Of a DNA stretch of 64,000 bases, positions 1 to 20,654 are shown piece after piece. The notes under the pieces were generated by a model. The model had not been told where the DNA came from and searched no databases. It saw only the letters and a program-made list of their open reading frames with translations. Every line of letters starts with the position of its first letter. Position 1 is the first letter of the stretch. Both the position numbers and the translations under genes were made by a program. Source of the stretch: Acarospora socialis (lineage: Eukaryota; Ascomycota; Lecanoromycetes; Acarosporales; Acarosporaceae); assembly GCA_025617375.2 (NCBI GenBank), contig JAMYGW020000009.1:1550001-1614000 (forward strand), written 5' to 3'.

Positions 1-2
1 AG

Positions 3-3000
3 TCAGAGCTGCCGCCAACCGCAGTCATCCAAAATCTGAATACTAAAGAGCCTAATCTTGTGAATATGGTGAAAAATGGTGACACCGCAGGAGAATATCT
101 GTTCTTAGTGGATACCTCCAATATTGTCTTCAACCTTGCTGGACGGGGACACACTGTTGTAGGCCAGAGCCTCTGTCCGGCATCTATGTACATTGAAATG
201 GCCGCTAGATGTGCCATGGCAATCCCCGGCAGCACGTCTGGAACAGGAACATTGCCACACATCGAGGGCCTGACCATGTCCGCGCCTCTTGGACTGGGTG
301 GTGAGTCTACTGTGTTCCTGCGTCTTCGTAAGACTGCCCAAGAAACTTGGGATTTTGCGGTCTTTAGTCAGCGGCCCTTATATAGGGGCATGGAAGATGG
401 TGGGACCGAGCACGTCAAGGGCCGTATAAGCTTGGTTCCCGCGGGTGACATCTTCGCAGAAAGCCGATTGATGTTGCTGAAGAGGTTCGCCAGAAGCTCT
501 CGCGCTGATCGGATCCTGAACTCACCCTCGGTGACTGGGATCAGTGGCGCAATAGTGTACAAACTTTTCTCGGGCGTTGTGGAATATGCAAATTACTACC
601 GTGGAGTCAAGAGCTTGTCGGCACTGGATAATGAGGCGGTCGGCTTTGTCACTGTCCCAACAGACCGGCCCTTTGGCATGGATCCTATGGTCTGTGACCC
701 CATTTCTCTTGACAACTTCCTCCAGGTTGCGGGCATCCATGTCAACTGCTTATCCCATCGCAAGGATGATGAAGTCTTCATGTGCACCGCTATAGAGGAG
801 ATCATATTTTCCGCATCCTTCATGACAAACAAGCTTGATTCTCGCACATGGACCGTTCACTCCCAATACGAGACAACATCCAGAGTCAACATGATGAACA
901 ATATCTTGATTTATGATGCAAACTCCAGGGATTTAGTCTTGGCTGTCATGGGCGCAACCTTCAAGAGCGTCCCGTTCAAGTCCCTGGCGAGAAGCCTCAC
1001 CAGACTCAACACCGCCAGCACCACCGCCAGCACCACCGCGAGGAACACGAGAGACAGCGACAGCGACCAATCGAAGGACTGGGGACACCAAACATGTTTG
1101 CCTACGCCGCCTGGTGATGAGTATAAGGAACAGTTCCCCACGCATACTTCTTTCCCCAATCAGCCTATTACGGCATCGCTTCCAAAAAGACTTCAAATTC
1201 AACAGCCACCAGAAGAGCCAACCAAATTGAGCAACCTAACTCAGCTGGTATGCGAGATGTTCAGCAATATCTTGGAGATCCCTGACGAGGAGATCGAGCT
1301 CACATCAAAATTAGATGATCTCGGCATTGACTCACTGCTAGTCACTGAAGTCTTGGCAGAAGTTCAAAAACGATTCCATGTCGGTATTACGCAAGCGCAA
1401 TTCCAAGAATGTACCGATGTACTCTCTCTTTGCCGCCATATCCAGCCTGATGAAACGATTAAGAATTGTCGACGGCCTGTCGATAGATTGAGGGGAAAGC
1501 ATGACCCTAGCGACAAACCCATCAATGGCTACTCAGACTCTACACGTGAGATCCATGACAATGATGCTGAATATGAAGAGCAGATCGGGAAAAATCTCGC
1601 GGTTGTAAGTCACGACTGCTTCGTTCAAGCAAAAGTCTCTTACGACCAGCATGCAGAGACTACTAGCTTTGCGAACTTCTGCACCGAGGGTTTCCCATTG
1701 CAGTCTGAGCTCGTTGTGCAATATGTTGTCGTAGCCTTCGCCTCGCTAGGCTGTGCCTTGCAGGCTATGGAGTCTGGCGATGAAGTCCCCACATTTCAGT
1801 ATGACCCGAGACATAAGAAGCTAATTCACCAGTTATACAAGATTTTGGAAGGCTCTGGACTTGTGAAGAAGGAGGATGACGGCACGTTTTGTCGCACCGC
1901 GGTGCCGGTGCCCATGGTTCCTGCCCCTACTCTGCACGCTGTAATGTTGGACAAGTTCCCACAGCACGCTTCGGAGACGAAGCTTCTGCATACAACGGCA
2001 CACAGACTCGCCGACTGTCTTTCTGGAGCAGCAGATCCCTTGGCTTTGATATTCCGGGACTCGGCCGCACGCGCACTGCTCGAAGACGTATACATGAACG
2101 CACCCATGTTCAAAACCGGGACCCTGCTTCTTGCTCAGTACTTGTCATCTGTCCTGGAGTGCTTCGGCGGCAGTCGCGAGATTAGCATCCTTGAGCTAGG
2201 TGCCGGCACCGGAGGGACAACAAAGCAGCTCGTCGAGAAGCTGGCTGGACTGGGCACCGAGCACAAGTTCTCATACACGTTTACCGACCTCTCATCCTCG
2301 CTTGTCGCAGCTGCCCGTCGGAAGTTTGCCAAGTGGCCCTTCATGCACTACACCGTGCTTGATGTCGAGAAGGACCCGGGCCCACAGTTCGCGGGCGCGT
2401 TCGATATCATCATCTCGACCAACTGCATCCATGCAACCAAGGACCTTGTGCAGTCAACCACCAACATTCGCAAGATGCTGCACACCGACGGTGTACTATG
2501 TCTGGTGGAGCTGACGCGGAATCTATTCTGGTTTGATCTCGTGTTTGGTCTCTTAGAGGGCTGGTGGCTGTTCAGCGACGGTCGAGAGCATGCACTGGCA
2601 GATGAGTGGCGATGGGAGCGGTGCCTGCATGCTGCTGGATTTGAGTGGGTGGATTGGAGTGATAGTGCGTCCCAAGAATCGGATATTCTGCGGGTGATCA
2701 CGGCGTCTCCATTCAAAGTGGTACCATCTGTCGATACTAGTACGGTCATTTATGACCCTGGCAACATAAGAAATGGCGACAATCATGATATGCGGCAGAC
2801 CATGGTTTTCAAAAAGGTGGACCGCCTGGATCTCCGCGCTGATATCTACTATCCCCCTGGGCCAGTTGATCCTGGGAGAAGTCTTCCTGTAGGTAAGAGC
2901 ATTAGTGCAAGACTAAGCTTAACCACGCGATCTCCCAGGTGCTGGCTAGCTAACAGTACAATAGCTCTCATGATCCATGGAGGAGGGCATATCATGCTTT

Positions 3001-3911
3001 CGCGGAACGACATTCGGCCGGAGCAGACATATATGCTCTTAAAAAGCGGCTTTCTCCCAATCAGTGTTGACTACAGGCTCTGTCCCGAAACGACGCTCCC
3101 TGAGGGACCCATGGCTGATATTGCGGACGCGCTGGTGTGGATTAGAAACGTGCTTCCTAAGCTTCCTCTTATACGAACGGACGTCCGAGTGGACGGAGAG
3201 AGGGTGGTGAGCGTGGGATGGTCTACCGGCGGCCAACTGGCCATGTCTCTCGCGTGGACCAATGTTCCAAGAGAAGTCCGACCTCCCGAGGCTATCCTCG
3301 CCTTCTACTGCCCCATCGATTACGAGGATCCCTTCTGGACCAAATCCAACATCCCCGCCGGCTCCGAGGTCACGGCAACGACAATCACAGGTCAACCTTC
3401 ATCCTACAAACTCGATGATGACACCTGGGCTGGTGTATGTGATCACCCCATCACCAGCTACAAAGTCCCGCCCACCAAGCGCGCCCTCGGTGGCTGGCTG
3501 GCGCGCACCGATCCGCGCAGTCGGCTGGCGCTGTACATGAACTGGCACGGCCGCGTGCTGCACGTCCTACTCAACGGGCTCGACAAGCGGAGCCGGAGGG
3601 AGCCCCCAGCACCCGCACCGGCCGATGTCGCGGCCGTCAGTCCGCTGGCGCATATCCGCAGGGGCAAATACGCCACGCCGACCTTCATTATCCATCCCCG
3701 CCAGGACGACCTGATCCCGTGGCAGCAGGCCCAGCGGACGTGGGAGGCACTGCGTGCCCGGGAGATCGATGCGGAGCTAAGGATTGTGGAGGATGTGCCG
3801 CATTTGTTTGATGCGTATCGCCAGTATCAGGGCAATGAGGCGGCTAGGAGGGCTGTGACAGAGGGGTATGAGTTTCTGTGTAAGTACGTTGGGTTGACGT
3901 TACGTGACTGA
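3..3911 (+). CDS. Non-reducing polyketide synthase, C-terminal part (PT-ACP-CMeT-esterase)
   Basis: The reading frame is open from the left edge, so the SAT, KS and AT domains should lie upstream of the window. Visible domains in order: product-template fold (about 75-1000; hot-dog motif [15 protein letters not shown]), a Thr/Ala/Ser-rich linker (1000-1070), one ACP (about 1220-1450, phosphopantetheine Ser in LGIDSLL), a C-methyltransferase (about 1640-2730, SAM loop [15 protein letters not shown]) and a C-terminal alpha/beta-hydrolase (about 2960-3900). The hydrolase has the oxyanion motif MIHGGGH, nucleophile GWSTG, a candidate Asp in RQDDLIP and His in VPHLFD. This order matches the SAT-KS-AT-PT-ACP-CMeT-TE class that makes methylated orsellinate-type acids such as 3,5-dimethylorsellinate. 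A 72-nt segment (2893-2964, GTAAGA...ATAG) is probably an intron although it has no stop; removing it joins LPV to ALMIHGGG, as expected of the family. Product chain length and methylation count cannot be read from this part. Confidence 0.93.
2893..2964 (+). other. Probable in-frame intron in the PKS gene
   Basis: This 72-nt stretch begins GTAAGAGC, ends CAATAG, is a multiple of three and has no stop, so it can be mistaken for coding sequence. It falls just before the hydrolase oxyanion-hole strand, where the family shows no insertion. Confidence 0.75.
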
Positions 3912-4300
3912 ATAACTGCTAGAACCAAGTGGTAGCTACACCTAGTGTGTACGGAACTATCTCTTTGCATCTCCAAACATGCCCGGCTATTCAACTGATT
4001 GCCTACTAGTTGATTCTTGAGGAGTGTTTTGGTGCGTGTAAGTAGTAAGGTGGTCAAAGTGCCAACATTCGCCTTCATTCGCTGGGGACCAACCATACTT
4101 TCACAACTTCGTTATCTTCCTCGCAAAATTTTTGCTGGATCCTATAAAACAATGGGGTCCCAGCCATACCACCCTGACCCGTACAGTTATCAGGCAAATA
4201 CACAAAACATAACGACTTCACTCCAATGAAAATCAATTTGAAGAGTAACTATATATAGCTCACTTCTCTTCACTAGTGTACGATAGAGGAGTCCTATGAC
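3912..4300. other. Intergenic, PKS 3' end to hydrolase 3' end
   Basis: AT-rich spacer between two convergent genes. I see no coding exon; it should hold both 3' untranslated regions. Confidence 0.5.
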
Positions 4301-5558
4301 TTAGATTCTATGTTTGGTCTGCTGCCCGTCCTTCAACCTCGCCAAGATTTTACCATGCAAAGCAAGTTTGAAATCACTACAAAATAGCCACCGTGTTTCC
4401 GTCCGCAGATTGCTTGCTCTCCACGCATTAATGGTCTTCGGGAACAGCGGGATCTTGTCCCGCAGAGACAGGTCATGGGCGATAAGGATAAAGACGTTAT
4501 CCGCCGCATCGAGCTCCTGGATCTTCCGCACCGTATCCATAGCTGCATCGTGGTCCGGGAATAGCGGGCCTTGTGCTACCGTGAAGAATGGTGCGCTAGG
4601 ACTTCGTCCCATGGTGAGCTGTTGGAGCAGCTCGCCAGGACACACACTTACACCTGCATCTGTGCCTGCATTGGTTGCGGTGTCTGCGAGACCGCCCATG
4701 AACAGTGACGGCGTGATGGAACGCGGCAGCGGCAGGTAGTCGGTGGGCCGGAGCACACCTGGGTGGTGACAAGCATCAGCGCCCATGAAGATAAACGAGG
4801 GCGGATTAGCTGTGGTGCGCGCGAGTGCGCACATGTGGCCAACAGCGTGACCGGGTGCGTCAAGGAGATAAAAAGACCCATCACCAAAAAAATCCAGGGC
4901 ATCAAAGCGGCCAATCTTTAGACCTGTATTGTTGTCATTGTCGAAGGTGATCTCGTGAACCACCCGCCCCTGGACATCACTATCAAGCACTCTTCCATCA
5001 GGATTTTGCGGCCAACCCGGCCAGGAAGCAGCGCAGACACCAGGTCCCACAATGAGCTCTGTGCTGGACGGGAATGTGGATATGTCTCCAATATGGTCGA
5101 AGTGGTTGTGTGACCAGATCACGGCTTTGATGTCTGCACTGCAGATGTTGAGGCCGCTGCTGTCTGAGTCCAGGACTGATGTCACATCTGATCCCGATGT
5201 AATCACTGTCGTTGCTTTGATGAGTGACACGATCTTTGGTGCGTAGTTTTGCCAGTCTCGGCGGACACCGAGGTCGAACATGACATGGTGGTCACCATTG
5301 GATATCAGGAAGCAGTAGATGGGTGCGTGAAGACCAGCGAACTGTTGGAGCTTGGGCTGCCAGAAGAGTTTTGGGTCTAGGTAGAGAAGTGTATCACTGC
5401 AATATAGAGCGTGGGAGGATCGCGTCAGCCGGTTCAGGATCTCGTCCTCGGTGTCACGTAAGGTATGACATACGTATCGATAACCCTGACTTCTACCGTG
5501 GATGAAGAATCTGGTATCTGAAGCGCTGGTTGGGGTTTTGGGGTTGCAAGGCAAGCAT
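4301..5558 (-). CDS. Metallo-beta-lactamase-fold hydrolase (lactonase-like)
   Basis: Proposed exons are 5558-5497 and 5396-4301, giving 385 residues. The zinc signature WSHNHFDHIGD (HxHxDH) is clear, followed by the metal-ligand regions DAPGHAVGH and FMGADACHH and a late AHD. The motif MFDLGVRRDW is typical of the fungal branch related to quorum-quenching acyl-homoserine lactonases. The 100-nt intron (GTAGAA...TTGCAG) was chosen because the unspliced frame has no ATG at its head, whereas the ATG at 5558 joins in phase at the acceptor. The gene is divergent from the prenyltransferase across a promoter with eight decamer repeats, so it is probably co-regulated with it. It may open a lactone or hydrolyse a thioester of the polyketide. 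The PKS has its own release domain, so a role as the releasing enzyme is less likely. Substrate is unknown. Confidence 0.85.
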
Positions 5559-6175
5559 CGTCCATCTTGGTCAAGTTGAATTGAGCCAAAATAAATTCAT
5601 GTCGATACCCAAGGGGGCCTTGCCCTTCATTACCTGTTAACGCCTAACTTGAACTGTATGGAAGGCGGCTATTTCCGGTAACCCCCTTCCAGAGATAGTC
5701 ATACCCAACCCCAAATTGGGTAACTATGAGGTTAGACTTCATATGGTGATTACGGCATAATCTATAGAATTGAACGTTGATATCAGGACTTCAGGACCCT
5801 GACTTCTCAGAAAAAGTAATGCGGACTTCGGCAACTGCTGCAATTCACTACAGATTCCAAGGTACTCAGGGTTACTTAGGGTTACTCAGGGCCACTCGGG
5901 GTTACTCGGGGTTACTCAGGGTTACTCAGGTTTACTCAGGTCTCTCAATCTCAAATTCAGCTCCTCAGTTCCACCAAAAACAGAGGTATTATGCGAAAGG
6001 ATACTGGCAGACGAATCATAGTAGAGATACATGAGGCCTGTCAAACACCCCCAGCTCCTCCCGGACGAGAGTCCGTACTGTGGTCGAAAGTAAGGTAAAG
6101 TAGGAGAGTGCTCCTCGGCTGCTTCGTAAAAGACAAGACATCTTTTTGCACGACTTGGACACCTCATCGACGAGC
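5559..6175. promoter_or_regulatory. Divergent promoter between hydrolase and prenyltransferase
   Basis: A 617-bp non-coding interval between two divergently transcribed cluster genes. Its main feature is the decamer array at 5861-5940. No other gene is visible. Confidence 0.7.
5861..5940 (+). repeat. Tandem decamer array, eight copies, consensus GTTACTCAGG
   Basis: Eight consecutive 10-bp units fill 5861-5940 without gaps: GGTACTCAGG, GTTACTTAGG, GTTACTCAGG, GCCACTCGGG, GTTACTCGGG, GTTACTCAGG (twice) and TTTACTCAGG. One turn of DNA per unit would place every copy on the same helix face. The core TACTC(A/G)GG also appears upstream of other cluster genes (8775, 9318, 19048, 19067). That favours a transcription-factor array over a neutral minisatellite, but this is inference. 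Confidence 0.9.
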
Positions 6176-7565
6176 ATGGCGGTCGCGATCGAGTCCCCGA
6201 TGTTTCAGTCTTTGGAAACGGAGACTACAAACTCCAGGGCAATGGACACAACCAGCACGGCAGCAGTTTCGCCGTACTGGTGGAGCACCAGTGGCTGTGA
6301 CCTCTCCAACATGCTGCATGAGGCCAACTACCCAGAAGAAGTCCAGCGTCACTTCCTCAGCTTCTATCGGGACACTATCTGTCCACAGCTCGGAAATCGG
6401 CCTGATGGCACCTCAACCAAAAGCGGGGTGGGCCGGGATGGCAATCCTTTTGAGTATAGCTTTGAGCTGAAGGGTTCGACCGGAAGCCAGACCGTTCGCT
6501 TCGTCGTCGACGTTAGTGAGCTCCGCCCAGCACACAAGACCAACCCTCTGAGCATGGCGACCACGCAGAAGGTGGTGGACTCGCTGGCGGAGAGAACCCC
6601 CGGGTTCGATGACACCTGGTACCGTGCCCTTACTCAGTGGCTTATCCACTCCCATCTTCCTGCGAGCGAACAGCAAGCGCTGATCGCCGAGGCAGGGTAC
6701 CAGACGCCCGTAATTTTGGGCTTCGACATCCATCCTCGCGTCTCAGCTCCTGGGAGGCTCCCTGTCCTGGCCAAAGTCTACTTCCCTCCCTGCTTCACGG
6801 CCGCGGCCAAGGGGATCACCCGTTGGCAGGCCGTCCGCTTGGCTGTTCGGCAGCTCCCGGACGTCAACTTACATCCGAACATCCTGCGGTCCCTTGGTTT
6901 GATTGAGGACTACCTGTCTGACAAACCCAAAGATTGGGAAGACCAACCGCGGTACTTGGCCACAGATTTCGTTGCCCCAGGCAAGGCACGCCTGAAAATA
7001 TACATGCGCTATCCCGGACAGTCCTTCGACGAGATATGGGATTACTATACCCTGGGCGGACGGATCCCTGGTCTTGAAGACGACAGAGAGAAATTTCGAG
7101 ACTTGTACAACCTTGTGAGCGGTATTAGCTACGATTCCGAAACCGAGAAACAGAGCCAGACGGATCAGTCGCTGTACACAAGGGTCAGGCGGAAGGCGAC
7201 GGCCATATACTTCTCTCTCTCGGCAGAGAACCCATGCCCTGCCCCAAAAATCTGCTTCTACCCTGCCAACTTTGCACCGACTGACGAGGTAATTGCTCGG
7301 GGATTAGATGCGTGGTTGAGGAAGTATGAGTGGTATGATGGTGGGAAGTCTATGGAGGAGCGAGTAAAGAGCGTCTTGTACGTACTTTCCCTTTGATTGG
7401 ATTCGTCACGCTTCTAACAAAGGAAACAGCAGGCATCGCAGACTGGATGAGAAGACGGGGATCTTCACATTCATTGGCATTGGGAGGAAAGAAGATCCTA
7501 CCAAGAAGGATCTTAGTATCCAGGTGTATGTGAGCCCGGAGTTATATGAAACACCGCGCTACTAG
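6176..7565 (+). CDS. DMATS-type aromatic prenyltransferase
   Basis: Exons are 6176-7377 and 7430-7565 (acceptor 7430 or 7433; both keep frame), about 445 residues, the usual family length. Hallmarks in order are YWWSTSGCDLSNMLHEANYP near the N-terminus, GFDIHPRVSAPGRLPVLAKV (a basic diphosphate-binding strand), ARLKIYMRYPGQSFDEIWDY (the paired Lys/Tyr strand) and ICFYPANFAP. The C-terminal exon supplies the closing strand GIFTFIGIGRKED. The family transfers dimethylallyl or longer prenyl groups to electron-rich aromatics without a DDxxD motif. Next to a non-reducing PKS, the acceptor is more likely a phenolic polyketide than an indole. The ATG at 6176 is the first in frame; the frame upstream opens only at TTG. 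Confidence 0.92.
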
Positions 7566-9058
7566 AGTCGTGAACTGAGACATAGCGTGCGGGTGCTGGC
7601 TCTTTACTTAACCCATGCCGCAATAGTGAGATGCTTAAAAGGGTGTGATGCTACTCAAGTAACGATACAAACCCATCTCTCTGTGAATTTCACCAAGTTG
7701 AAAGCAGAATTAGGGAAAGCCGTGATGGATTGGATCCCCGGTCTGGCATCTATGAACCCAACATTGAATGCATGGCAAATCCACCAGTTTCCACTGTTGC
7801 CTGCTAATTCCACTCTCGTACCATCGGTGTGTATCAAGAAGTCATATGTCAGAAATGTTGAACACCTGTCAATGATTCTCTGGAGCACCGAATCTTTCAT
7901 GTTCTGGGTATTTAGATTGATGTGAATCAGACTGAAACAAGCCATTTAAAACCTTCTTCATGTCCACTATGGGGCTAATTGCTGGTAGAATCATGATATC
8001 GTCACCAATATAGGAATGAGGTAGAGCATATGTATCACAGACTGAACGGTCTTATAAATGTGCTTGGCAATTAGCATGACTGTGAATCCTCTACTCACGT
8101 TCTGGTCACTCAGCAATAAAATCCCGGTTCTTCCAACAAGAGCAACTTCTTCCCTCCAAACGCTCTCTAAAGAAATCCAGAACGAGCAAGAGAGCTGGCA
8201 CGTCAACGACCTTGTGAACGTCATCCACAACACCACCAGTCGAAGAAGAATGCATATTGTGCCTGGACGTTGTACAACTGAGGCGCGTGGAGGAAAGATG
8301 CTTCGGTCGTTGAGCGCGGCAAGCCACCTCGTCTACGTATAGCAAGAGCCATTTCAGGCAAGTCGATCGATAGACTGGACAAGTGGTGGAGGACCGCGCT
8401 TGCCGAGGAGAGAAACCCCGGATCGAGACGGCGAAAAAGATTGCTACCTACTCTAGAAATGATACAAGCTCCCAGGGAGCTAGAGACAAGGGCGCTTGTT
8501 AAAGAAGCAAGACGTGCCAGCCGAGCTAGGAGGAGCTGCAAGACAGGTGGTAGGAGAAGCTGAGGAGGAACTTGCGGGGAAAGACACCGAGGAAGCTGGG
8601 GAGGGATTTCGGGCGAACTCGACGAGGAGTCTGGCGAAGAGTCTGACAAATTCGAGGAGGATCCTGCAGATGGGTCAGCCGAGGAGCGGCTTGCCAATGT
8701 TCGGACAGATTGTGACTGATGGATGGATCTCTGGGCGGTCAATCCTTCACACCCTTCCATCTGTCAGCCGTAGCTACTCAGGATCCTCAAAAAGAACACA
8801 AATTTGCTATAAACTAGACGAATCAAGAAGTGCCAAGGACGAGCCGGTGCCCGAGCGCGCAGATAATCCGCCCATCTCCGGCACGTACTCGTACGCTGCC
8901 GAATTGTACGTCAGGTTCGGCAGGGCGGTGGGGTTGCAACGGGGGCTGGGTCTGGGGGAGGCACAGGCTAACACAATAGATCGAGAACTTACAAAGTAGA
9001 TACGACTAGATAGCTACCAATTGATATGCATTGACTCTCAGGCTGTAACTAATTGCTA
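7566..9058. other. Long non-coding or decayed interval
   Basis: No convincing gene. Part of 8340-9000 has biased composition, giving Arg/Glu-rich and Ser/Leu-rich readings on the two strands. A short reading near 8880-8990 (ELYVRFGRAVGLQRGLGL) vaguely resembles the middle homology region of fungal Zn2Cys6 factors and could be a relic, but this is weak. One TACTCAGG core lies at 8775-8782. Confidence 0.4.
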
Positions 9059-9223
9059 CAGGTTATGGACACAGCGGGTGGGATAGCCGCATATGGGAGA
9101 ATCCTCTAAATTAGCCCTGTAAAAACTCCGCTCTCATACAAAATCTGTCAGTGTCACCCTGGACTTGCTCTTAAATAGTGGTATTTTAATATGCGGCTAT
9201 CCACCCGCTGTGTCCATAACCTG
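9059..9223 (+). mobile_element. MITE with 35/36-bp terminal inverted repeats and TA flanks
   Basis: The left end begins CAGGTTATGGACACAGCGGG and continues for 36 bp. The right end is its reverse complement over 35 bp, differing by a single G in a run. Both ends are flanked by TA (9057-9058 and 9224-9225), the target duplication of Tc1/mariner-type (pogo/Fot1-like) elements. The 165-bp body has no coding capacity, so this is a non-autonomous element. The near-perfect ends suggest recent activity or folding constraint. It lies about 340 bp upstream of the SDR start. Confidence 0.88.
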
Positions 9224-9317
9224 TAGGCGGTAGGAGGCGGGAGGCGACGCCATCCCGCTATCCCGCCATCAGCCCCGGGTCCAGGGAGCAGCCCGAGCCG
9301 CGTAAAACCAACCGGGA

Positions 9318-9325
9318 CCTGAGTA
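9318..9325 (-). promoter_or_regulatory. TACTCAGG core upstream of the SDR
   Basis: CCTGAGTA on the plus strand is the complement of the decamer core in the hydrolase/prenyltransferase promoter. It lies about 235 bp before the SDR start codon. A single 8-mer could occur by chance. Confidence 0.4.
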
Positions 9326-9559
9326 GCGCTTGCTACCTTATGATCTCGGACAAGCTCGAACTCGGATTTAAACACTTTAACACCGTCTCTTAACACCGTC
9401 TCTATCTCAGAAAGCCAACAGAAAGTCACACGGCCTGCAACATTTACAAACTGTACCTTGCTCTGATAGGGATTCTCATCAGGCTTGTTGCTTCACTGAC
9501 TTCACCGAATTTGTCACCTTCGAATTCGCCAAATTTGCATCAACCCGAAAGCAGCAACC

Positions 9560-10499
9560 ATGTCTGCCACATTCACCACGCCCAAGAAGCAGCTTACCTG
9601 GCTGATTACAGGCTCGTCCTCCGGCTTTGGCCTCTCACTCACTCGCATCGCACAGGCAGGTGGACAAAAGGTGATCGCGACTTCACGCAACCCTTCGCGC
9701 ACGCCCGAGCTCGTTGCGGAGATCGAGGGCAAGGGGGGGAAATGGCTCCAGTTGGACGTGGACAGCCCCAACAGCGCCCAGTTAATCGAGGACCTTGAGA
9801 AGTCGGGCGAGGAGATCGATGTCCTGGTGAACAATGCGGGCTTTTCGATCTTCACCCCCATCGAAACCTCCACAGAGGACGAGATCCGCGCCCAGATGGA
9901 GTCGATGTACTTCGGCCCTCTGCGTCTGATCCGAGCAGTGCTGCCTCACATGCGCAAGCGAAGATTCGGCGTCATCGCGAACATGAGCAGTGGCGCGGCT
10001 CTCGACGCTAGAGATACCATGGGCGCTTACGCCGGAGCCAAGGCCGGACTCGATGGTACGTGTATCCTCCACTACTCCTTGGTGTGTTAGCCCTGACTCG
10101 GGTTGATGCACAGGTCTGACGAAGGTCCTGGCAAAAGAGGTGGCCCCGTTCAACATCCGAGCCTTGACCGTCGTCCTGGGCACCTTCAACACCAACATGG
10201 GCAACGCCGCCGTGTTCGGCAAGAATCCCCTCCCCGACGATTACAAGGGATCTGTGTCCGAGCAGATGATTCAGTTCCTGAAGAGCGGCAAGATCCCCAT
10301 CAACGGCGACAAGGACAAGGCCATGAAGGCCGTCTACGAGGTCGTGGTGGGCGAGGGTGCCGGAGCCGGACGCGAAGCCGAGCGATTCCTCCCTCTGGGC
10401 ACTGACATGACGGCCCGAGTAAAGACGGTGCAGGACTACCTTGCGCACGGCCTCGAGGCCTTTGCGGACGTCACCAACAATGTCAACATCGACAAATGA
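9560..10499 (+). CDS. Short-chain dehydrogenase/reductase
   Basis: Exons 9560-10055 and 10114-10499 give 293 residues, joined by a 58-nt GT-AG intron (GTACGT...CACAG). The classical SDR signatures are present: cofactor loop TGSSSGFG near residue 16, NNAG near residue 90 and the catalytic pair YAGAK near residue 155. The post-catalytic loop runs IRALTVVLGTFNTNM. An acidic residue is not obvious after the second strand, and an Arg-containing stretch (ATSRNPSR) favours NADP(H). It probably reduces a ketone or oxidises an alcohol on the cluster product. Proximity and a TACTCAGG core upstream are the only evidence that it belongs to the cluster; a general metabolic role is also possible. Confidence 0.9.
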
Positions 10500-12441: not shown

Positions 12442-13974
12442 ATGGCCCGCGCTAGACGGATTTGGACCCTAGAGGAGGACGCTCTTCTCCGAAGTGCGGT
12501 CAACAATGGTGGGTTTCGGGTTCTGGCCTCGGCTTCGGACAGCCAAGATACCTCGTTCAAGTCTTCACACTTGATGCTAACTGTGTATAGTCTTGGCACA
12601 CTCTCGTCCACTTCTCTGGCGGGAATTGGCCAAATCTGTACCCGGGCGGTCAAACAAGGATTGCCGCAGAAGATGGTGGAATAGTCTCGCAGATGGCACG
12701 GCCAAGGGCTCCTGGTGTGAGGAGGAGGATGAACGACTCATTGAAGCTGTGCGGAAGCATGGCACAAATTGGAGTCAGGTCGCGCGGGCTGTTGTGTCAA
12801 GGAATCCAGACCAATGCTCAAGTCACTGGAGCCAGGTGCTAGACCCGGACATCAACTACTGCGATTGGACGACAGAAGAGGTTTTGCCTATCAGCTCCGG
12901 CCCAGTGTTCTTGTTTAGTGGTCATTGACAGCTTCTAGGATGAGCACTTGCTTCACGCAGTCCTTACCCATGGCACCAACTGGACCACCATCGCGGCTTC
13001 ACATGTTCCCAAGAGGACCACTCTTGCACTCAAGAATCGCTACTCCACCCTGCGCCTGAGACATGAGAATGGCAACAAGTCCAAGGAACATACTGCTGGA
13101 AAGGCACTTAGGGCTTCCCCGTCTAGCTTCGAAGGTGCCATGGCGACCTCTAAGAAGAAAATGAGGACGAACCAGAAGGTCCAAGGATATCTCAGTAAGA
13201 GGGCAGATGAAGGTGATGATGATGTCGAGGAAGATGACGACGAGGATGACGAAGATGAGGATGGAGAGGAGGAAAACGGGGATGGGGACGACGATGATGG
13301 CAGGGTGCCCCATGTCCAATTCATGGCCAATTTCAAGAAAGCAAATACCGGCAAGATCGGCAGTCACACAAAAGACTCGAACATAACAACCTCGGATGCC
13401 TGGGCCGGCTTTGCTGAGCGAAGTGGTCATTTCACCCCCAGCTCCTTCCCCACGGGACATCTCCCCTCTCTAGAGAGAACTGGACAGACGATACCGCGGA
13501 TCACGCACCCTACGAGAGCCCGTTTTCCTTGAATCACCCTTCGCTATACGCGGGGCCGGGGGAGGATTTCTTTGGTGCCATTCAGGGCCCCGGTGGAATG
13601 AGCACGAGCGCGCCGGATACAATATATAGTAGGCTTGCTCTAATCTGTTTATATCCACAGACACAGACAGGCTTGCTGACTTGAGCGCAGGTGGAGATGC
13701 TATGGATATCTTTCTTCCCCCCTCGCCTGGCTATCCCACCTTAACCAAGCCAGCGACGGCCTCATCCGCCAGCGGCAACCTGGTGAGAACAGATTTCAGT
13801 CCTTCACAGGCTTCAAGAGATGTGTCCACGAGCCCCACAGCCCAAGGCCATTCCTCGACAACTTACCAGATATCCATCAACATGGTCTGCACAGGTGCGC
13901 AACTGGAAGCTGTCATGGTCCGTCTGGCCGGCGCAGGGACGTGTGTCAACATGAAAATCGACCCAAAATCATAG
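12442..13974 (+). CDS. Myb-type DNA-binding protein, candidate cluster regulator
   Basis: Proposed exons are 12442-12508, 12591-12880, 12939-13362, 13419-13628 and 13691-13974, giving 424 residues in frame. Three SANT/Myb repeats occupy roughly residues 5-165, with Trp-spaced helices (RRIWTLEEDALL, GSWCEEEDERLIEAV, CDWTTEEDEHLLHAV) and recognition helices such as PGRSNKDCRRRWWN. A Lys-rich stretch and a very acidic run (DVEEDDDEDDEDED) follow. The C-terminal strand-helix (GAQLEAVMVRLAGAG) resembles a small conserved tail seen in fungal Myb proteins. The fourth intron is weakest: without it the frame ends at 13532, whereas splicing 13363-13418 opens a second frame that joins the last exon in phase. 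Position inside the cluster suggests a regulator, possibly binding the TACTC(A/G)GG sites; this is inference. Confidence 0.8.
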
Positions 13975-14742
13975 CAGAAGTCAAATTCTCTGCCCAATTG
14001 TCAGGAATCCACAATCAGATGCCACGACAGAAGACAGCATCAAGCATACGATAGAACTGAAATATGGGATTAAAAGTTCAGAGCTTTGACCACTTTCGAG
14101 GCGATATCAAGTCCTGTTCATAGCCAAAGAAACTGGCCTGGGGCTAAAAGCGCATAGATACGTACTCGTACAGTAGAAGAGAAGTTACACGCGCTAAAGA
14201 CTAGCATCTATAAAAGCCTGTAGAGAAGAAAGTCAACAGTAATAAATCTAGATCGTTCGGGTTGGCGATCTTGGGCCCCCAAATCACCGCTGCTCAGGTG
14301 GCCTGGCGCTGAAGCTGGATTTCTGCTGACTTGCAGGCGCCTCTAGTAGGGACCGGACCCACCGTGACTACTTCTGCCTGATATGAAGTACGAGCCAATA
14401 TCATCACCAGGATCCGGGCCCCGGTGTGCTTCTATTCCTGGGTCCGAAGCATGCGTAATGGTCAGTCCGCCACCGCCCGACCCGAGTGAAAGGGACGGTC
14501 TGAACCTCCCGAGATTCTGTGTGTTGCAACGGAGATATAGGTCTGCGTTATATCTTACATGTGGGTCCTGTTTCTTTCCTTTTTTCCTTGGACATGATGC
14601 ATATAACCCTCTATAATTCCCCGTCTTTTCTCCTATTGCATTGCCCTGCATTGCTCTGTCTTGCATCGCATTGCATCGCATTGCAGTGTGCCTCTCTTGC
14701 TCATACCCAATCAGATCATCTTTCTCTGAATATAAAGTACTA
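13975..14742. other. Intergenic, upstream of the GMC oxidoreductase
   Basis: No gene seen. Contains CACTCGGG on the minus strand (14481-14488), matching one decamer variant of the 5861 array, and a short GCATTGCATC-type repeat at about 14662-14688 just before the GMC start. Confidence 0.45.
14481..14488 (-). promoter_or_regulatory. CACTCGGG variant of the decamer core
   Basis: The plus strand reads CCCGAGTG. It matches the fourth unit of the decamer array and lies about 255 bp upstream of the GMC start. Suggestive only. Confidence 0.3.
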
Positions 14743-16854
14743 ATGGCGGTATTGCCGATATCTTATCGCAAGCTGCTACTAGTGGTAACGGGTTTGTTCC
14801 GCTTATGCTGCAGCAGCACAGTCTGGGCCAATGCCCACATCGCTCGGTCCGACTCAGTCCGACACCAAGAACTTGGTCGCATCTTTGACTATGTGATCGT
14901 CGGCGCTGGTCCTGGGGGGTTGGTTATGGCCAACCGACTGACAGAGGACCCAAACGTTTCTGTTGCTGTCGTTGAGGCAGGTACTTGGCCTGAGGATGTG
15001 GTTGGCAATTGGACCGAGGTTCCAGCCTACAACGGTAATTTTGATTTGGTGTCAGCCAATGCGACTCCCTCTGGGGTGGATTGGGGTTTCCTCACAACTC
15101 CGCAGTCTGTTAGTCTTCACTTTTCACTAACTTGGGGGTGCGCACTGACCATCTTGGTCAGGGCATCAACGGTCAGGTTGTCCGTTATCCGCGCGGAAAG
15201 GCTGTAGGTTACCCTGGATTGAGTTTCATGTAAACAAAGCAAGTTCACTGACGTTCACCTAGCTGGGCGGTAGTTCGAATTTGAACGCTATGGCTTGGGC
15301 AGACTCCTGTAGGGGTGCATTCAAGAGATGGGCCGACGTAGTGGAAGACCAGTCCTACACATATGATACGGTGGCCAAGTACTACAAAAAGGCCATGAAC
15401 TTCACGCCTCCCTCTGACACCAGAATTGCCAACGCCACTCCCTCCTATAATCCTGCTCTTGTTGCAGAGGGAGGTCCATTAGACGTATCGTATCCTGCCT
15501 ACGCCTATAGTTGGACCACGTGGCTGGCTGTTGCGTTGGAAGGTATCGGCATTAAGAACACCGACAGCTTCATTAACGGGGCCCTGAACGGTTCGGCCTG
15601 GCAAACTAACACTATCAATCACACAACTGGCTTCCGGGCTTCTGCAGACAGGGCATATCTGCGCCCTTACCTTCACCGGCGGAACTTGGCCGTGTTCAAT
15701 GGCACCCTTGGCGAGCGCATCCTCTTCAACGATGATAAAGTAGCCATGGGCGTCGAGGTCACAACCGGCGACATTTCATACACCCTGAATGCCACCCGCG
15801 AGGTCATTCTCGCCGGTGGAGCCTTCCAGTCACCACAGCTCTTGCAGGTGTCCGGTGTCGGACCCACCGCCTTGCTTCAGGAGCATGGCATCCCTGTGGT
15901 TGCAGACCGTCCCGGTGTCGGGCAGAACCTGAATGATCAGTTCTTCTTTGGCATCGGGTACCGGGTCAATCTAGAGACCTTGCCGTCACTCAGCCTTGGC
16001 GACAACGTTGCCATCGACGTTGAACTATTCAACACCAATGCCACGGGTCGTTTGACCAACCCAGGGGGTGAGTATGCCGGTTTTGAGAAAGTCCCTGAGG
16101 ACCTGCGATCCAACTTCTCGGCATCTACACTCGAGAGTAAGTGTTGTGTCGTTTGTCTCTTCTCTTCGTCAACTACTTTCTAGCAACGCTCGCGGTCGTT
16201 CATACAACTTCCTTATATCATGGGTTCGTGAAAGATTAGCAAGCACCAAACTAACGCTATGATGTAGCTCTTGCAGGGTTCCCAGAGGATTGGCCAGAAA
16301 TTGAGTACCTTACTCTTCCCGTTTTTGTCGGAAACCTTCAAACCACCCCTCCTCCTACGGATGGCTTCAATTACGCCACCATACTAGCGACCCTGATGGC
16401 CCCCACATCTCGGGGGAACGTATCCATTATGTCCCCACGCATGAGCGACCACCCCTTGATCAACCCCAACTGGCTCACAACCCAGTCCGACATCGAGGTC
16501 TCGATCGCCATGTTCAAGCGTCTGCGCCAAGCGTGGACTGTCCCAGCCCTGGCGGCGAACTTGACCATTGGCGATGAGTACTACCCCGGCCCGAGCGTGC
16601 AGACAGACAAGGAGATCGAGCAGCAGATCAGATCTAGCATGATCCCAGTGTCCCACGCGAGCGCCACATGCAAGATGGGCAAGGCGGACGATGAGCTTGC
16701 GGTTGTGGACAGCCACGGGAAGGTGTATGGAGTCAAGAACTTGCGGGTTGTCGATGCCTCTGCGTTCCCGTTCCTGATCCCAGGCACGGCACCTCAAGCT
16801 GCGGTGTACATGTTAGCAGAGAAGATTGCCGATGACGTCAAGAACGGCAATTGA
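14743..16854 (+). CDS. Secreted GMC-family FAD oxidoreductase
   Basis: Exons 14743-15108, 15162-15203 (a 42-nt micro-exon), 15263-16136 and 16268-16854 give 622 residues. The protein starts with a hydrophobic signal-like segment. The FAD fold follows: FDYVIVGAGPGGLVMANRL (GxGxxG) with the acidic end VVEAG. Splicing restores the GMC signature across exons 2 and 3, RYPRGKA then LGGSSNLNAMAW. The second signature is REVILAGGAFQSPQLL, and the C-terminal active-site region has MIPVSHASATCKMG and VDASAFPFLIPGTAPQAAVY. Several N-glycosylation sequons fit a secreted or vesicular enzyme. Family members oxidise alcohols; relatives finish secondary metabolites (PatE in patulin). An alternative acceptor at 16277 would remove three residues. 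Confidence 0.92.
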
Positions 16855-17170
16855 AGCAGGTTCTCCCTTTGTACTCGCTCTCAGGGGCAGGGGGGACTAG
16901 AAGAGTGCGTGACTGTATACTACTTCTTTTCAGGCTGAACGTGTTTATATCTTCACAAACCTTTACCCGCGACTGTATATGGTTGTACTTTGCCTACTTA
17001 GTACGGGCATATCTCAATCATCTACATGGGGCCGAACGCCTCTTAAATCAAGAGGCCTAGCCTCATGCCCACTCCAACTTTGGTACTAGATGACTGCGGG
17101 ATGGCAAAGCCGGTGGCTGGCCAGAGGCAAAAAGCCGAAAAATGTGAGACCCCGGTCCCTCATTCCCAGC
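16855..17170. other. Convergent intergenic spacer
   Basis: Lies between the GMC 3' end and the P450 3' end. Nothing coding seen. Confidence 0.5.
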
Positions 17171-18754
17171 CTATTCTGATGACCACTCGATCTCGAGGTG
17201 ATGACCCTTTATCTCACCATTAAACCACTCAATCATCTCAATACGCTGCTGGCACGTCCGAGCCCCTTCCAGCACTTCGCCATCTACCATGGCCATGATG
17301 GTCTCATGCAGCTGTTGCTGGGCCAGGTTCTTCCCGATGCACGCCCTCAAGCCAGCCCCAAAGGGAATCATGCTCTTCTCCATATCCGGCCGGTGCAGAC
17401 CCTCGTCCTGGCCATCCTCCAACCACCTCTCGGGGCGAAACGCGAACGGGTCCGGGAACACGTCCGGGTCGTGATGCAGCATGTAGGCCGCGCATCCCAC
17501 AACCGTTCCCGGCGGCAAGCGGACGGCCCCAACGCGCAGTCCCGTCGCCGGTACCACGCGCGTCAGGCGCGTGGGATTCGCCATGCCCAGCCGCAGGCCT
17601 TCCTTGACGACGGCGCGCAAGTACGGCAGCGCTTGCGGGTCCGTGGGCGGCGCGCTCGTGCCTTGGTCGTTGGGAGCGGTGGCTCTGGCTTTGCTGCTGC
17701 GAATCTCACGCAGCAGACGTGCTCGCGCGTCCGCATTGTGAACCAGGTGGAACACAACCGTGGCCAGCATCACCGCCGTTGAGTCCGCCCCGGCGAACAC
17801 GATCGCCTTAGACTGCGCCGCCGCCTCGGCGGGCGAGATGCCTGCCTGGAGGAGCCGCCCCTGGTAGGCTGAGTCTGCTCGGGCGGACGGCGAATCCGTA
17901 TCCTTTGTCGCGAGCGCGCTCTCCATGACCCCGTCAACGAACCGATCGAGCTGAAGGAAGGACCGAACGACCTCGTCACTGGAGTTCACCCGGCTGGAAA
18001 CAGCATGCACGAGTCGGAAGAGCCAGTTCGGCAGCAGTGAGAAGCGCGAAAACGCCACGATGGCGAAGATGAAGGGGTTGGCGCTCAGCTTGGTCTTTTG
18101 CCGGGCATGTGGGGGGAGGCCGGCGTGCTCGCCCAGACCGCCATACCGCTCGCCCAGCAAATATCCGGTCACGACATCGATGGAGAGGCGAGCGCATAGG
18201 TCCACGATGTCCACCTTGACCGCGGCGGTCTTGAATGCGCGTAGCTGGTCCACGAACTCGCCCACGCAACTTCCAATGACCCCGTTGGGCTCGCTCGCGG
18301 CGCGGAGCCGCACGGGTGCAAACAGGGGTGCGACGGCTTTGGCGCGCCTGTCGCGGTACTCGGTGTCGATGGCCGAGAAGATGGATACGACTGGCCCGAG
18401 GTTGAAGTTCGTGTACCGGGCATCTTTCGGAAACCCACCACTTGTGATATAAATGTCGCGGATGGCGTCACTGTCGGAGATGGAGACGGAGTTGGGTGCA
18501 ACCCGGAGCACTTTTGTCTTGTACTTTTGATGGTGATATCGGACTGCGCGACCCTCTATCCCGAAATAGCATATAGTGTGTAAGTAAATGGAGCTGGCCC
18601 TGGCCAGGAACGGGCCGGGCACGTGGCTTAGAGGATGGAAGTTCAGGCGGTATAGTACAGGTACCAGGGTCACCGCAAGAACGAGCGCGGCTGTGGCGGT
18701 TGCATTGTCTCGTAGGGCCGCTGTGACTAAGATGCTGTCCTGTATCAGCGGCAT
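17171..18754 (-). CDS. Cytochrome P450 monooxygenase
   Basis: A single uninterrupted frame of 527 residues. It opens with an N-terminal membrane anchor (about residues 13-35) and a proline hinge (HPLSHVPGPF). The I-helix is FAGADSTAV, the ExxR motif is KEGLRLG, the PERW motif is FRPERWLEDG and the haem loop is FGAGLRACIGKNLA with the cysteine ligand. It should sit in the endoplasmic reticulum and hydroxylate or oxidise the polyketide scaffold. Overall layout resembles fungal benzoate-4-hydroxylase-like P450s, but the exact CYP family was not determined. It is divergent from the O-methyltransferase across a 465-bp promoter with two TACTCGG-type sites, supporting joint regulation. Absence of introns in a gene this long is slightly unusual beside its neighbours. 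Confidence 0.94.
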   Translation of the reverse strand: MPLIQDSILVTAALRDNATATAALVLAVTLVPVLYRLNFHPLSHVPGPFLARASSIYLHTICYFGIEGRAVRYHHQKYKTKVLRVAPNSVSISDSDAIRDIYITSGGFPKDARYTNFNLGPVVSIFSAIDTEYRDRRAKAVAPLFAPVRLRAASEPNGVIGSCVGEFVDQLRAFKTAAVKVDIVDLCARLSIDVVTGYLLGERYGGLGEHAGLPPHARQKTKLSANPFIFAIVAFSRFSLLPNWLFRLVHAVSSRVNSSDEVVRSFLQLDRFVDGVMESALATKDTDSPSARADSAYQGRLLQAGISPAEAAAQSKAIVFAGADSTAVMLATVVFHLVHNADARARLLREIRSSKARATAPNDQGTSAPPTDPQALPYLRAVVKEGLRLGMANPTRLTRVVPATGLRVGAVRLPPGTVVGCAAYMLHHDPDVFPDPFAFRPERWLEDGQDEGLHRPDMEKSMIPFGAGLRACIGKNLAQQQLHETIMAMVDGEVLEGARTCQQRIEMIEWFNGEIKGHHLEIEWSSE

Positions 18755-19219
18755 TATCTTGCGGTACCGCCCTGTTCACAGAAGGCGGGGTTGCTACAGA
18801 TTGTTGAGATGTTTTCTCACTGGTCTCCAAACACTGAAAAGAAACAACAAAGATCTGGGTTCCTTGCGTTTGTGTCCGAGTCCATCAAGGCTCACGAAGC
18901 GGTAGTCAAATGCAATAGCTGGACCGCGCTCGCAAAAGCTTACTGGTACCGGTATTATCTTTTGTCGGGCTCATATTGAGCATAACCACCAATTACACGG
19001 TGTACCGGAGCCGGCTGATTGCGTAGTGTATTCAGGTAGGGCATGCGTACTCGGGGTTAGTGAAAATACTCGGACTTCGTCATCCCCAAACGTGACGCTG
19101 CGAACTTGGAGGACAGTCACCAAAATGAAAAGGTCCATTTGATAATGCTGAGTCTGGATCATAGGTATGACAAGCAGGCGTTCAATCCCAGTTTTGGAAC
19201 TTCAAGTGGAGAAACAGCC
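18755..19219. promoter_or_regulatory. Divergent promoter between P450 and O-methyltransferase
   Basis: Non-coding 465 bp. It contains TACTCGGGGTTAG at 19048-19060 and TACTCGG at 19067-19073. The first shares ACTCGGGGTTA with the junction of two units in the 5861 array. Confidence 0.6.
19048..19073 (+). promoter_or_regulatory. Pair of TACTCGG sites, candidate cluster operator
   Basis: TACTCGGGGTTAG (19048) and TACTCGG (19067) are spaced 19 bp start to start, about two helical turns, 150-170 bp upstream of the methyltransferase start. The 11-mer ACTCGGGGTTA is also present in the decamer array, which makes chance agreement less likely than for the short core alone. Confidence 0.5.
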
Positions 19220-20654
19220 ATGGCGTCACAAACAAACGGACTGGATGGACACAACGGCCAAAATGTTCAGAAGATCCTGCAAACTCTGGAGGGAATAAAC
19301 GCTGAATCCTTTGGTAATGACGGAGAAAGAATTCAGGCTGTTGTGGCGGCGTATGCCCTCGTGTCTCGACTGGAGACGCCCTGGGAGTTCATCGCGAGAC
19401 TCTGCATGGGCCAGGTACGCGCCGACATCCACTCTCTTGGACTGAAGCTGAAAAGTTATCAGCCAGCGCTAGGCGCTGCTCTGAAAGTGGGAAAAGATCT
19501 GCAGCTTTTCGAAAAGTGGCATGAATGCGGTGATGGGGAGATGACAAGCGAGCAGCTCGCCGGGATCGTATCTTGTGACCCTGCTCTCCTTGGTCAGTGT
19601 CCGTGAAGATACACAGAGAGTGCTCTTGAAGCTGAACATAGTTGGTGTTCTAGTCCGCTTGCTCCGCCACTTAGCAGCAAACCATATGCTTCAAGAGACT
19701 TCGATCGGGATCTTCAAGCCGACCAAGTTCACTCTTGCTCTTCTCAAGCCAGTCTTTGGAGAGTGGATCAACCATCTGTATGTCACTTGGCTATGGAACT
19801 CACAAGTGTACATTCCTACGTACTAATGGCTGACTCAGTTACGATGCAACAATCCCTTGCTTCTTCAAGATGCCCGAGTATCTGGCTCAGACGGGCTACA
19901 AAAACCCTGTGGATCCCGCTGACGGTGTTTTTCAGTACATGAAGGGTTGGAAGGGAGATATGTTTCACTACTACGATGCCCATCCTAGGGAAGGGGAATC
20001 ATTCAACCATGTCATGGGCGGTGTGATGGCTCACCAGGCCGGATGGCTGGACATCTTCCCTCATGATATCCTGCTAAATTCGGACACCGACCTTCCTCTC
20101 TTAGTAGACGTGGGAGGGAATGTTGGTCATGACATGGAAAGATTTCGCCAAGCTCACCCAGAGACAGCTGCTCGTCTGTATTTGCAGGACAGGCCAGAAG
20201 TTGTAAAGCTCTCCAAGTGTCCTGAACCCGTCAACAAAATCGGCTATGATTTCTTCACACCACAGCCTATCAAAGGTAACACTTGTCCTACTCAGCTAAG
20301 GTAGCACGCATCACAACCATTGACTACTCAACCACAGGAGCACGTGCATACTACATGCATGGTGTCCTCCACGACTGGTCCAACGAACCGGCTCGCAAGA
20401 TTCTCAAGATGCAGAAAGAGGCAATGACACTGGGCTACAGCACACTCCTGATACATGACCACATTGCTCCCGAGGCTCTGGCCCACCCTCACATCACGGC
20501 GTATGATCTGACTATGATGGTGATGGTGGCGGGCGAGGAGAGGACTGAGTCGCATTGGCGCGAGTTGCTGAAGTCTGCTGGATATGAGGTGGTCAGGATC
20601 TGGAGATCGCCGCTGGCTGTGCAAGCCATTATCGAGGCAGAAATTGCGAAGTGA
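19220..20654 (+). CDS. SAM-dependent O-methyltransferase (plant/fungal COMT-like)
   Basis: Exons 19220-19592, 19654-19777, 19839-20275 and 20338-20654 give 416 residues with clean phases. The N-terminal dimerisation/winged-helix part includes MTSEQLAGIVSCDPALL then VRLLRHLAANHML. The SAM-binding strand is LLVDVGGNVGHDMERF; the family usually has GGG, and here the third Gly is Asn. The catalytic histidine lies in MHGVLHDWSNEPARKIL, and the closing segment is EVVRIWRSP. The enzyme should methylate a phenolic hydroxyl of the pathway intermediate. It is divergent from the P450. The ATG at 19220 is chosen over an upstream in-frame ATG (19106) because family proteins begin close to this position. 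Confidence 0.92.

What the first reader, a model, noticed from the sequence alone, without database searches (positions are those of the whole stretch)
3..20654. Candidate prenylated, C-methylated aromatic polyketide cluster
Seen: NR-PKS with CMeT and esterase release domain, MBL-fold hydrolase, DMATS prenyltransferase, SDR, Myb protein, secreted GMC oxidase, P450 and O-methyltransferase within 21 kb, with every enzyme frame closed. Known: this PKS class makes methylated orsellinate-type acids, and DMATS enzymes prenylate phenols as well as indoles. Inference: the product is a methylated phenolic acid or aldehyde, prenylated, O-methylated and oxidised. I do not recognise a characterised cluster with this exact gene set.
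Basis: partly seen in the sequence, partly recalled or inferred. Interest (0 to 1): 0.8.

Follow-up and report, generated by a model that had tools for sequence, protein, structure and literature searches.

The report
Prenylated phthalide gene cluster without cyclase
This stretch of fungal DNA is an intact set of genes of an already described kind (the mfm/pset type) that most likely builds a small methylated phthalide ring carrying a five-carbon prenyl tail; it is a new member of a known pathway family rather than a new pathway.

Summary
In detail: the named genes are present and open. The PKS starts 4 kb left of the window; completed from the same contig it is a SAT-KS-AT-PT-ACP-CMeT-esterase NR-PKS (2527 aa), with a P450 divergent from it outside the window. 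P450, NR-PKS, metallo-hydrolase, DMATS, SDR, GMC oxidase, second P450 and OMT match, class for class, 8 of the 9 enzymes of the characterised mfm cluster of Annulohypoxylon moriforme (PMC10882540); only a Pyr4 terpene cyclase was not found. That paper also describes a cyclase-less relative, pset, whose prenyltransferase dimethylallylates cyclopolic acid. The PKS is 67% identical to an A. moriforme PKS (presumably MfmB, a dimethylorsellinate synthase). The prenyltransferase has Tyr260/Cys360 where PsetPT (C5 donor) has Tyr251/Cys348 and MfmD (C15 donor) has Gly257/Tyr357. Best reading: dimethylorsellinate is hydroxylated and lactonised to a phthalide, O-methylated, hydroxylated to cyclopolic acid and O-dimethylallylated. 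The patulin-synthase-like GMC oxidase has no assigned role in the published pathway and may act later. New member of a known kind; modest interest.

The parts
1..3911 (+). NR-PKS, SAT-KS-AT-PT-ACP-CMeT-esterase (MfmB-like); the gene starts at -4001, outside the window. A P450 (MfmA-like by class and place) lies divergent at -6637..-4759, also outside the window
   Evidence: Gene models; Pfam domains; active-site motifs; 67.3% identical to an A. moriforme PKS
4301..5565 (-). metallo-beta-lactamase-fold hydrolase (MfmC-like), 2 exons, 395 aa
   Evidence: Model; Pfam Lactamase_B; HNHFDH motif; relatives next to PKS or DMATS relatives in several fungi
6176..7396 (+). DMATS-type aromatic prenyltransferase (MfmD/PsetPT-like), 406 aa, Tyr260 and Cys360 at the prenyl-donor positions
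   Evidence: Pfam PF11991 272 bits; alignment with 120 hits; tree
9560..10499 (+). short-chain dehydrogenase/reductase (same class as MfmJ), 2 exons, 293 aa
   Evidence: Model; Pfam; TGxxxGxG and YxxxK motifs
12442..13532 (+). three-repeat Myb-domain protein; membership in the cluster undecided; exon borders not resolved
   Evidence: Frames; Pfam (on a hand-joined reading)
14743..16854 (+). GMC oxidoreductase, patulin-synthase-like (same class as MfmG), 4 exons, 622 aa
   Evidence: Model; PDB best match patulin synthase 8bxl 437 bits, next 189 (on an earlier 598-aa model); 70.4% and 65.8% identical to GMC domains joined to the PKS in two Chaetothyriales gene models
17171..18754 (-). cytochrome P450 (MfmF-like by class), 527 aa, single exon
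   Evidence: Pfam 148.9 bits; haem motif FGAGLRACIG
19145..20654 (+). O-methyltransferase (MfmE-like by class), 4 exons, 434 aa
   Evidence: Model; Pfam Methyltransf_2; best solved relative MpaG' of the mycophenolic acid pathway, 150.8 bits, next lepI 122.1

Best explanation
It is an mfm/pset-type biosynthetic gene cluster without a recognisable terpene cyclase. Shown here: the genes, their intact frames, their family relationships and the dimethylallyl-type residues of the prenyltransferase. Inferred from the published reconstitution of mfm: the NR-PKS makes 3,5-dimethylorsellinic acid; the P450 beside it hydroxylates methyl groups and the metallo-hydrolase closes the lactone, giving 5,7-dihydroxy-4-(hydroxymethyl)-6-methylphthalide; the OMT methylates the 7-OH; the second P450 hydroxylates C-3, giving cyclopolic acid; the DMATS enzyme puts a dimethylallyl group on the 5-OH, giving 5-O-dimethylallylcyclopolic acid. 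Least certain: SDR and the patulin-synthase-like GMC oxidase act after that, the GMC perhaps oxidising the 4-hydroxymethyl group to an aldehyde.
For: Eight of nine mfm enzyme classes present. PKS 67.3% identical to the A. moriforme PKS and in one clade (support 0.95, 34 leaves) with it and with the C. orchidophilum one. Prenyltransferase has Tyr/Cys at the two positions that the paper reports as Tyr251/Cys348 in the dimethylallyl enzyme PsetPT and Gly257/Tyr357 in the farnesyl enzyme MfmD. PKS-MBL-DMATS relatives adjacent by locus tag in P. fimorum, and in pairs in five further genomes. GMC joined to the PKS in two Chaetothyriales gene models. OMT nearest to MpaG' of a phthalide pathway. Earlier survey: the P. 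nodorum SNOG_06682 cluster shares mpaC, mpaD and mpaE homologues and has a DMATS (PMC4205913, passages).
Against: No Mfm protein except presumably MfmB could be compared directly, so P450, OMT, GMC and SDR are matched by class, order or PDB relatives only. The window PKS is nearer to the mfm than to the pset lineage, while the prenyltransferase is of pset type. The nodes that join the PKS to its next relatives are weak (0.47, 0.52). The number of C-methylations cannot be read from sequence. Absence of Pyr4 rests on a search whose controls do not ring and on a look at the gaps.
Confidence: 0.7

Rival explanations
1. A zinniol/zinnimidine-type cluster: the NR-PKS makes 3-methylorsellinic acid, the acid is reduced, and the DMATS enzyme O-prenylates a benzenedimethanol that a flavin oxidase turns into an isoindolinone or phthalide.
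For: The zin cluster has NR-PKS, P450s, OMT, SDR, an O-prenyltransferase and a flavin-dependent oxidoreductase (PMC12268544).
Against: The zin route needs the A-T-R reductase ZinF; none was recognised among the locus genes, and the PKS ends in a hydrolase domain, not a reductase. The metallo-hydrolase here is not in the zin gene list.
Confidence: 0.08
2. An mfm-like phthalide cluster whose PKS makes a mono-methylated orsellinate (mycophenolic-type core, 5-methylorsellinic acid), giving a prenylated methylphthalide with one C-methyl fewer.
For: P. nodorum's SNOG_06682 cluster, a relative of this one (PKS 54.9%), was likened to mpa (PMC4205913); the OMT is nearest to MpaG'.
Against: The PKS is far closer to the A. 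moriforme PKS (67.3%); SNOG_06682 is reported at only 38% to MpaC.
Confidence: 0.12
3. Two neighbouring units: a core of P450, PKS, MBL and DMATS, and an unrelated set of GMC, P450 and OMT beyond the Myb gene.
For: About 7.3 kb holding only the SDR and Myb genes separates DMATS and GMC; mfmG and mfmJ were dispensable for compound 1.
Against: GMC, a second P450 and a methyltransferase are all in the mfm gene list, and two Chaetothyriales gene models join PKS and GMC.
Confidence: 0.06

Closest known systems
mfm cluster, Annulohypoxylon moriforme CBS 123579 (PMC10882540)
   Same: P450, NR-PKS with close sequence (67.3% to the A. moriforme PKS), metallo-hydrolase, DMATS, methyltransferase, second P450, GMC and SDR
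   Different: mfm has a Pyr4 terpene cyclase and a farnesyl-type prenyltransferase (Gly257); here no cyclase was found and the residue is Tyr
pset cluster, Aspergillus pseudotamarii CBS 117625 (PMC10882540)
   Same: homologues of MfmA-F, no terpene cyclase, Tyr/Cys prenyltransferase that dimethylallylates cyclopolic acid
   Different: PKS 62.2% against 67.3% for mfm; the part of the paper I read does not say whether pset has GMC and SDR
Parastagonospora nodorum SNOG_06682 cluster (PMC4205913)
   Same: CMeT-TE NR-PKS with mpaC, mpaD, mpaE homologues and a DMATS (passages)
   Different: an HR-PKS lies nearby; product unknown in that survey; PKS 54.9%
zin cluster, zinniol/zinnimidine, Alternaria alternata (PMC12268544)
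   Same: NR-PKS, P450, OMT, SDR, O-prenyltransferase, flavin oxidase; an O-prenylated methylated benzenoid
   Different: uses an A-T-R carboxylate reductase; no metallo-hydrolase in the gene list; 3-methylorsellinate core
mpa cluster, mycophenolic acid (PMC11934065)
   Same: P450-hydrolase formation of a phthalide from a C-methylated orsellinate (passages); OMT relative MpaG'
   Different: P450 and hydrolase fused as MpaDE; farnesyltransferase MpaA, described as UbiA-like in PMC4205913; here separate genes and a DMATS

Membership tests
mfm/pset-type DMATS phthalide clusters | CMeT-TE NR-PKS of the MfmB lineage | tested here: met
   67.3% identity to the A. moriforme PKS (presumably MfmB); shared clade, support 0.95
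mfm/pset-type DMATS phthalide clusters | P450 plus metallo-hydrolase (MfmA/MfmC) beside the PKS | tested here: inconclusive
mfm/pset-type DMATS phthalide clusters | DMATS-type prenyltransferase of the MfmD/PsetPT kind, no UbiA in the cluster | tested here: met
   PF11991 272 bits; both donor-site columns align with the published numbering; 0 of 6 UbiA matches in the genome lie on contig C9
mfm/pset-type DMATS phthalide clusters | OMT (MfmE) and second P450 (MfmF) | tested here: inconclusive
   both classes present; OMT nearest MpaG' in the PDB; MfmE and MfmF sequences not compared
mfm (farnesyl-drimane) variant | Pyr4-family terpene cyclase gene | tested here: inconclusive
   PF25129 finds nothing in the genome, but no control rings; of 200 gap ORFs one has two hydrophobic stretches and no Pfam match
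mfm (farnesyl-drimane) variant | Gly at the prenyl-donor position of the prenyltransferase | tested here: not met
   Tyr260
pset (dimethylallyl) variant | Tyr at the prenyl-donor position and no cyclase | tested here: met
   Tyr260 and Cys360; cyclase not found, with the caveat of the row above
mfm/pset-type DMATS phthalide clusters | product is an O-prenylated cyclopolic-acid-type phthalide | not testable with these tools
   needs expression and chemistry
zin (zinniol/zinnimidine) clusters | carboxylate reduction by an A-T-R protein (or a PKS R domain, as in pkf) | tested here: not met
   PKS ends in an alpha/beta-hydrolase domain; no A-T-R protein among the nine genes scanned between -6.6 and 20.7 kb; the rest of the genome was not searched for one

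The most novel reading that the evidence does not exclude
A mosaic member of the family: a PKS of the farnesyl/cyclase (mfm) lineage paired with a prenyltransferase of the dimethylallyl lineage, plus a patulin-synthase-like GMC oxidase with a real job here, oxidising the prenylated cyclopolic acid to a cyclopaldic-acid-like aldehyde or a chromanol-type product not yet tied to a cluster. That would give a role to the GMC step, which had none in the mfm reconstitution.
Probability: 0.25. Interest if true: 0.45.

Novelty: new member of a known kind. Interest (0 to 1): 0.3.

Why it matters
It extends a recently described O-prenylated phthalide pathway to another, unnamed fungus (nearest named PKS relatives: Chaetothyriales). 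It gives a testable prediction of prenyl-donor choice (dimethylallyl, from Tyr260) and offers an intact GMC and SDR for finding late steps that the published reconstitution left without a role. Relatives of its PKS, hydrolase and prenyltransferase, adjacent in pairs or as a triad, occur in lichen fungi, Penicillium, Stachybotrys and Monosporascus. As the mfm authors note, antiSMASH labels such clusters 'T1PKS, indole', which may mislead.

Tried and rejected
Zinniol/zinnimidine cluster: seriously considered because its enzyme classes match; set aside for lack of a carboxylate reductase among the scanned genes and presence of the metallo-hydrolase. Indole prenylation: set aside; relatives of this DMATS neighbour PKS or MBL relatives, and solved enzymes named as tryptophan prenyltransferases match at 88 bits or less. 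MBL as the stand-alone release thioesterase of TE-less PKSs: considered, but this PKS keeps its own hydrolase domain. NmrA-like gene at -12261..-11236: left out; it lies about 4.6 kb beyond the outside P450, past an ORF that I read by eye as syntaxin-like (not tested). Right of 20654: of the frames that I scanned to 33 kb (four) none is a typical cluster enzyme; smaller frames there were not scanned. Zn2Cys6 regulator: no motif in single frames between -8 and 26 kb, which would miss one split by an intron. One paper search with five enzyme terms gave 0 papers.

Is this locus in print? Ten paper searches, open PMC library only. The fungus is unnamed, so no paper could be tied to this very locus; the cluster type is in print (PMC10882540).

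Limits: the counts of shared contigs rest on equal contig lengths among the 120 listed hits of each search (of 174 DMATS, 2489 PKS and 2079 MBL hits), not on annotation; one MBL hit (P0261) and one PKS hit (P0231) carry no contig. Two counted PKS rows (P0188, P0190) are second PKSs on contigs already counted. Structure prediction was not run.
Full report
What is there. The window is G000:C9:1550001-1614000 of a 31.1 Mb assembly in 38 contigs. The PKS runs off the left edge, so 40 kb of left flank was fetched and genes were modelled by my own splice-site and codon scoring (searches failed). In window coordinates, negative meaning left of the window: P450 -6637..-4759 (-), PKS -4001..3911 (+), MBL 4301-5565 (-), DMATS 6176-7396 (+), SDR 9560-10499 (+), Myb about 12442-13532 (+), GMC 14743-16854 (+), P450 17171-18754 (-), OMT 19145-20654 (+). 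The eight enzyme models have no internal stop. Pfam gives SAT, KS, AT, dehydratase-like (PT), ACP, methyltransferase (with HTH_51) and alpha/beta-hydrolase domains in the PKS and the expected families in the others. KS, AT, ACP, methyltransferase and hydrolase motifs of the PKS are intact, as are the MBL HNHFDH motif, the haem motif of the inside P450 and the SDR motifs.

What it is. The decisive comparator is the mfm cluster of Annulohypoxylon moriforme (PMC10882540; parts 1-3 of 4 of the text read; supplements not seen). It holds a P450 (MfmA), NR-PKS (MfmB), metallo-hydrolase (MfmC), DMATS (MfmD), methyltransferase (MfmE), P450 (MfmF), GMC (MfmG), Pyr4 cyclase (MfmH), SDR (MfmJ) and two regulators. 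Eight of those nine enzyme classes are here; the cyclase is the one not found. The paper's route: MfmB makes 3,5-dimethylorsellinic acid; MfmA and MfmC make the phthalide; MfmE methylates; MfmF hydroxylates to cyclopolic acid; MfmD O-farnesylates; MfmH cyclises; MfmG and MfmJ were not needed. The pset cluster of Aspergillus pseudotamarii has homologues of MfmA-F and lacks the cyclase; its PsetPT dimethylallylates cyclopolic acid.

PKS. The identities that follow are, which aligned the window PKS with the 120 PKS hits listed (of 2489): 72.2% to a Chaetothyriales protein (P0121), 67.3% to the A. moriforme one (P0124, presumably MfmB; its listed name is cut short), 62.2% to A. pseudotamarii, 55.9% to C. 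orchidophilum (species of the ocd cluster), 54.9% to SNOG_06682 and 44.7% to AN8383 of A. nidulans, which I know as AusA (recalled). In a midpoint-rooted tree of these 121 sequences it groups with three Chaetothyriales PKSs (support 1.0) inside a 34-leaf clade (0.95) that holds the A. moriforme and C. orchidophilum enzymes; the pset species falls outside that clade, in a subclade that joins at a weak node (0.47). The two nodes just around the query group are also weak (0.47, 0.52).

Prenyl donor. The paper names Gly257 and Tyr357 in MfmD against Tyr251 and Cys348 in PsetPT; the first position decides between farnesyl and dimethylallyl, the second alone has no evident effect. In an alignment of the window enzyme with the 120 listed hits (of 174), A. 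truncatum P0078 has Gly257 and Tyr357 and A. bertholletiae P0049 has Tyr251 and Cys348, the very same numbers, so the columns are identified; the window enzyme has Tyr260 and Cys360. Over the 120 hits the first column is Tyr in 99, Gly in 9, Phe in 6, Trp in 4, Asn in 1 and Cys in 1. The nine Gly sequences form one clade (0.999), outside the 110-leaf group (0.853) that holds the query. The prediction is therefore a C5 prenyl group.

Neighbourhood in other fungi. Locus tags place the relatives side by side: P. fimorum N7463_009523 PKS, 009524 MBL, 009525 DMATS; Monosporascus DL769_008582 DMATS and 008584 PKS, and DL770_009538 MBL and 009539 DMATS in another strain; cf. Caloplaca Q9219_006845 DMATS and 006846 MBL; Blastenia Q9170_008046 MBL and 008047 DMATS; Stachybotrys S40288_08480 PKS and 08481 MBL. 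By equal contig length, 22 of 120 PKS rows share a contig with a listed MBL and 10 of 120 with a listed DMATS; 14 contig lengths are shared by the DMATS and MBL lists; 3 PKS rows have both. On long contigs this does not prove adjacency, and P0188 and P0190 are second PKSs on contigs already counted. Two Chaetothyriales gene models (P0121, P0128) join the PKS to a GMC that is 70.4% and 65.8% identical to the window GMC. This ties the GMC to this PKS lineage; it also shows that gene order differs there.

Tailoring enzymes. The OMT's closest solved relative is MpaG' (150.8 bits; next lepI, 122.1), a methyltransferase of the mycophenolic acid (phthalide) pathway. The GMC's is patulin synthase (437 bits; next 189). 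The MBL's solved relatives are weak matches, lactonases first (27.8 bits). The outside P450 gave only general P450 matches. An earlier survey noted that the SNOG_06682 cluster of P. nodorum shares mpaC, mpaD and mpaE homologues but carries a DMATS (PMC4205913, passages); MpaDE is the P450-hydrolase fusion that forms the phthalide (PMC11934065, passages). This supports the phthalide reading of the P450 and MBL pair. Lichen DMATS-type enzymes as a group have been argued to act on polyketides and phenylpropanoids rather than indoles (PMC11443524, passages).

Against, and open. MfmA, C, E, F, G and J could not be compared directly. Pyr4 absence rests on a search whose controls do not ring and on a look at the gaps: of 200 gap ORFs of 40 aa or more between -9 and 25 kb, one, 7994-8332 (-), has two hydrophobic stretches and no Pfam match. 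The PKS is nearer to the mfm than to the pset lineage while the prenyltransferase residues are of pset type, so the cluster is mosaic or keeps an older state. The Myb gene may be a bystander.

Other routes considered. The zin cluster (PMC12268544; abstract, part 1 of the text, two results sections and passages read) shares most enzyme classes but needs an A-T-R reductase and has no metallo-hydrolase in its gene list. The genome holds six UbiA matches, none on contig C9, so the usual membrane prenyltransferase of such meroterpenoid clusters is not beside this PKS.

Verdict. It is a new, intact member of the mfm/pset family, most likely making 5-O-dimethylallylcyclopolic acid or a further oxidised relative.

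Noticed in passing
G000:C5:1768001-1818000 (L011-L015): A second locus of the same genome has two NR-PKSs that match the window PKS (about 1768.1-1774.5 kb and 1788.6-1795.8 kb), a P450 (1786.4-1788.2 kb) and a distant DMATS (23.5% identical); no MBL match at E 1e-5 in these 50 kb.
   Followed up: partly
G000:C7:1542639-1543726 (L004, L006): A further DMATS-family match whose reading crosses one TGA and one TAA; introns or decay were not told apart.
   Followed up: no
29272-32048 (+): Patatin-like frame followed by a frame with DUF7779 and TPR repeats, reminiscent of fungal NLR-like proteins (family likeness recalled).
   Followed up: no
40944-48186: An AMP-binding acyl-CoA-ligase-like gene (-) and an acyl-CoA oxidase (+) lie near each other, perhaps a separate metabolic group.
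   Followed up: no
   Followed up: no
P0261: A Cladonia uncialis protein 69% identical to the window MBL is named 'Putative demethylase' in UniRef, an odd name for this fold.
   Followed up: no
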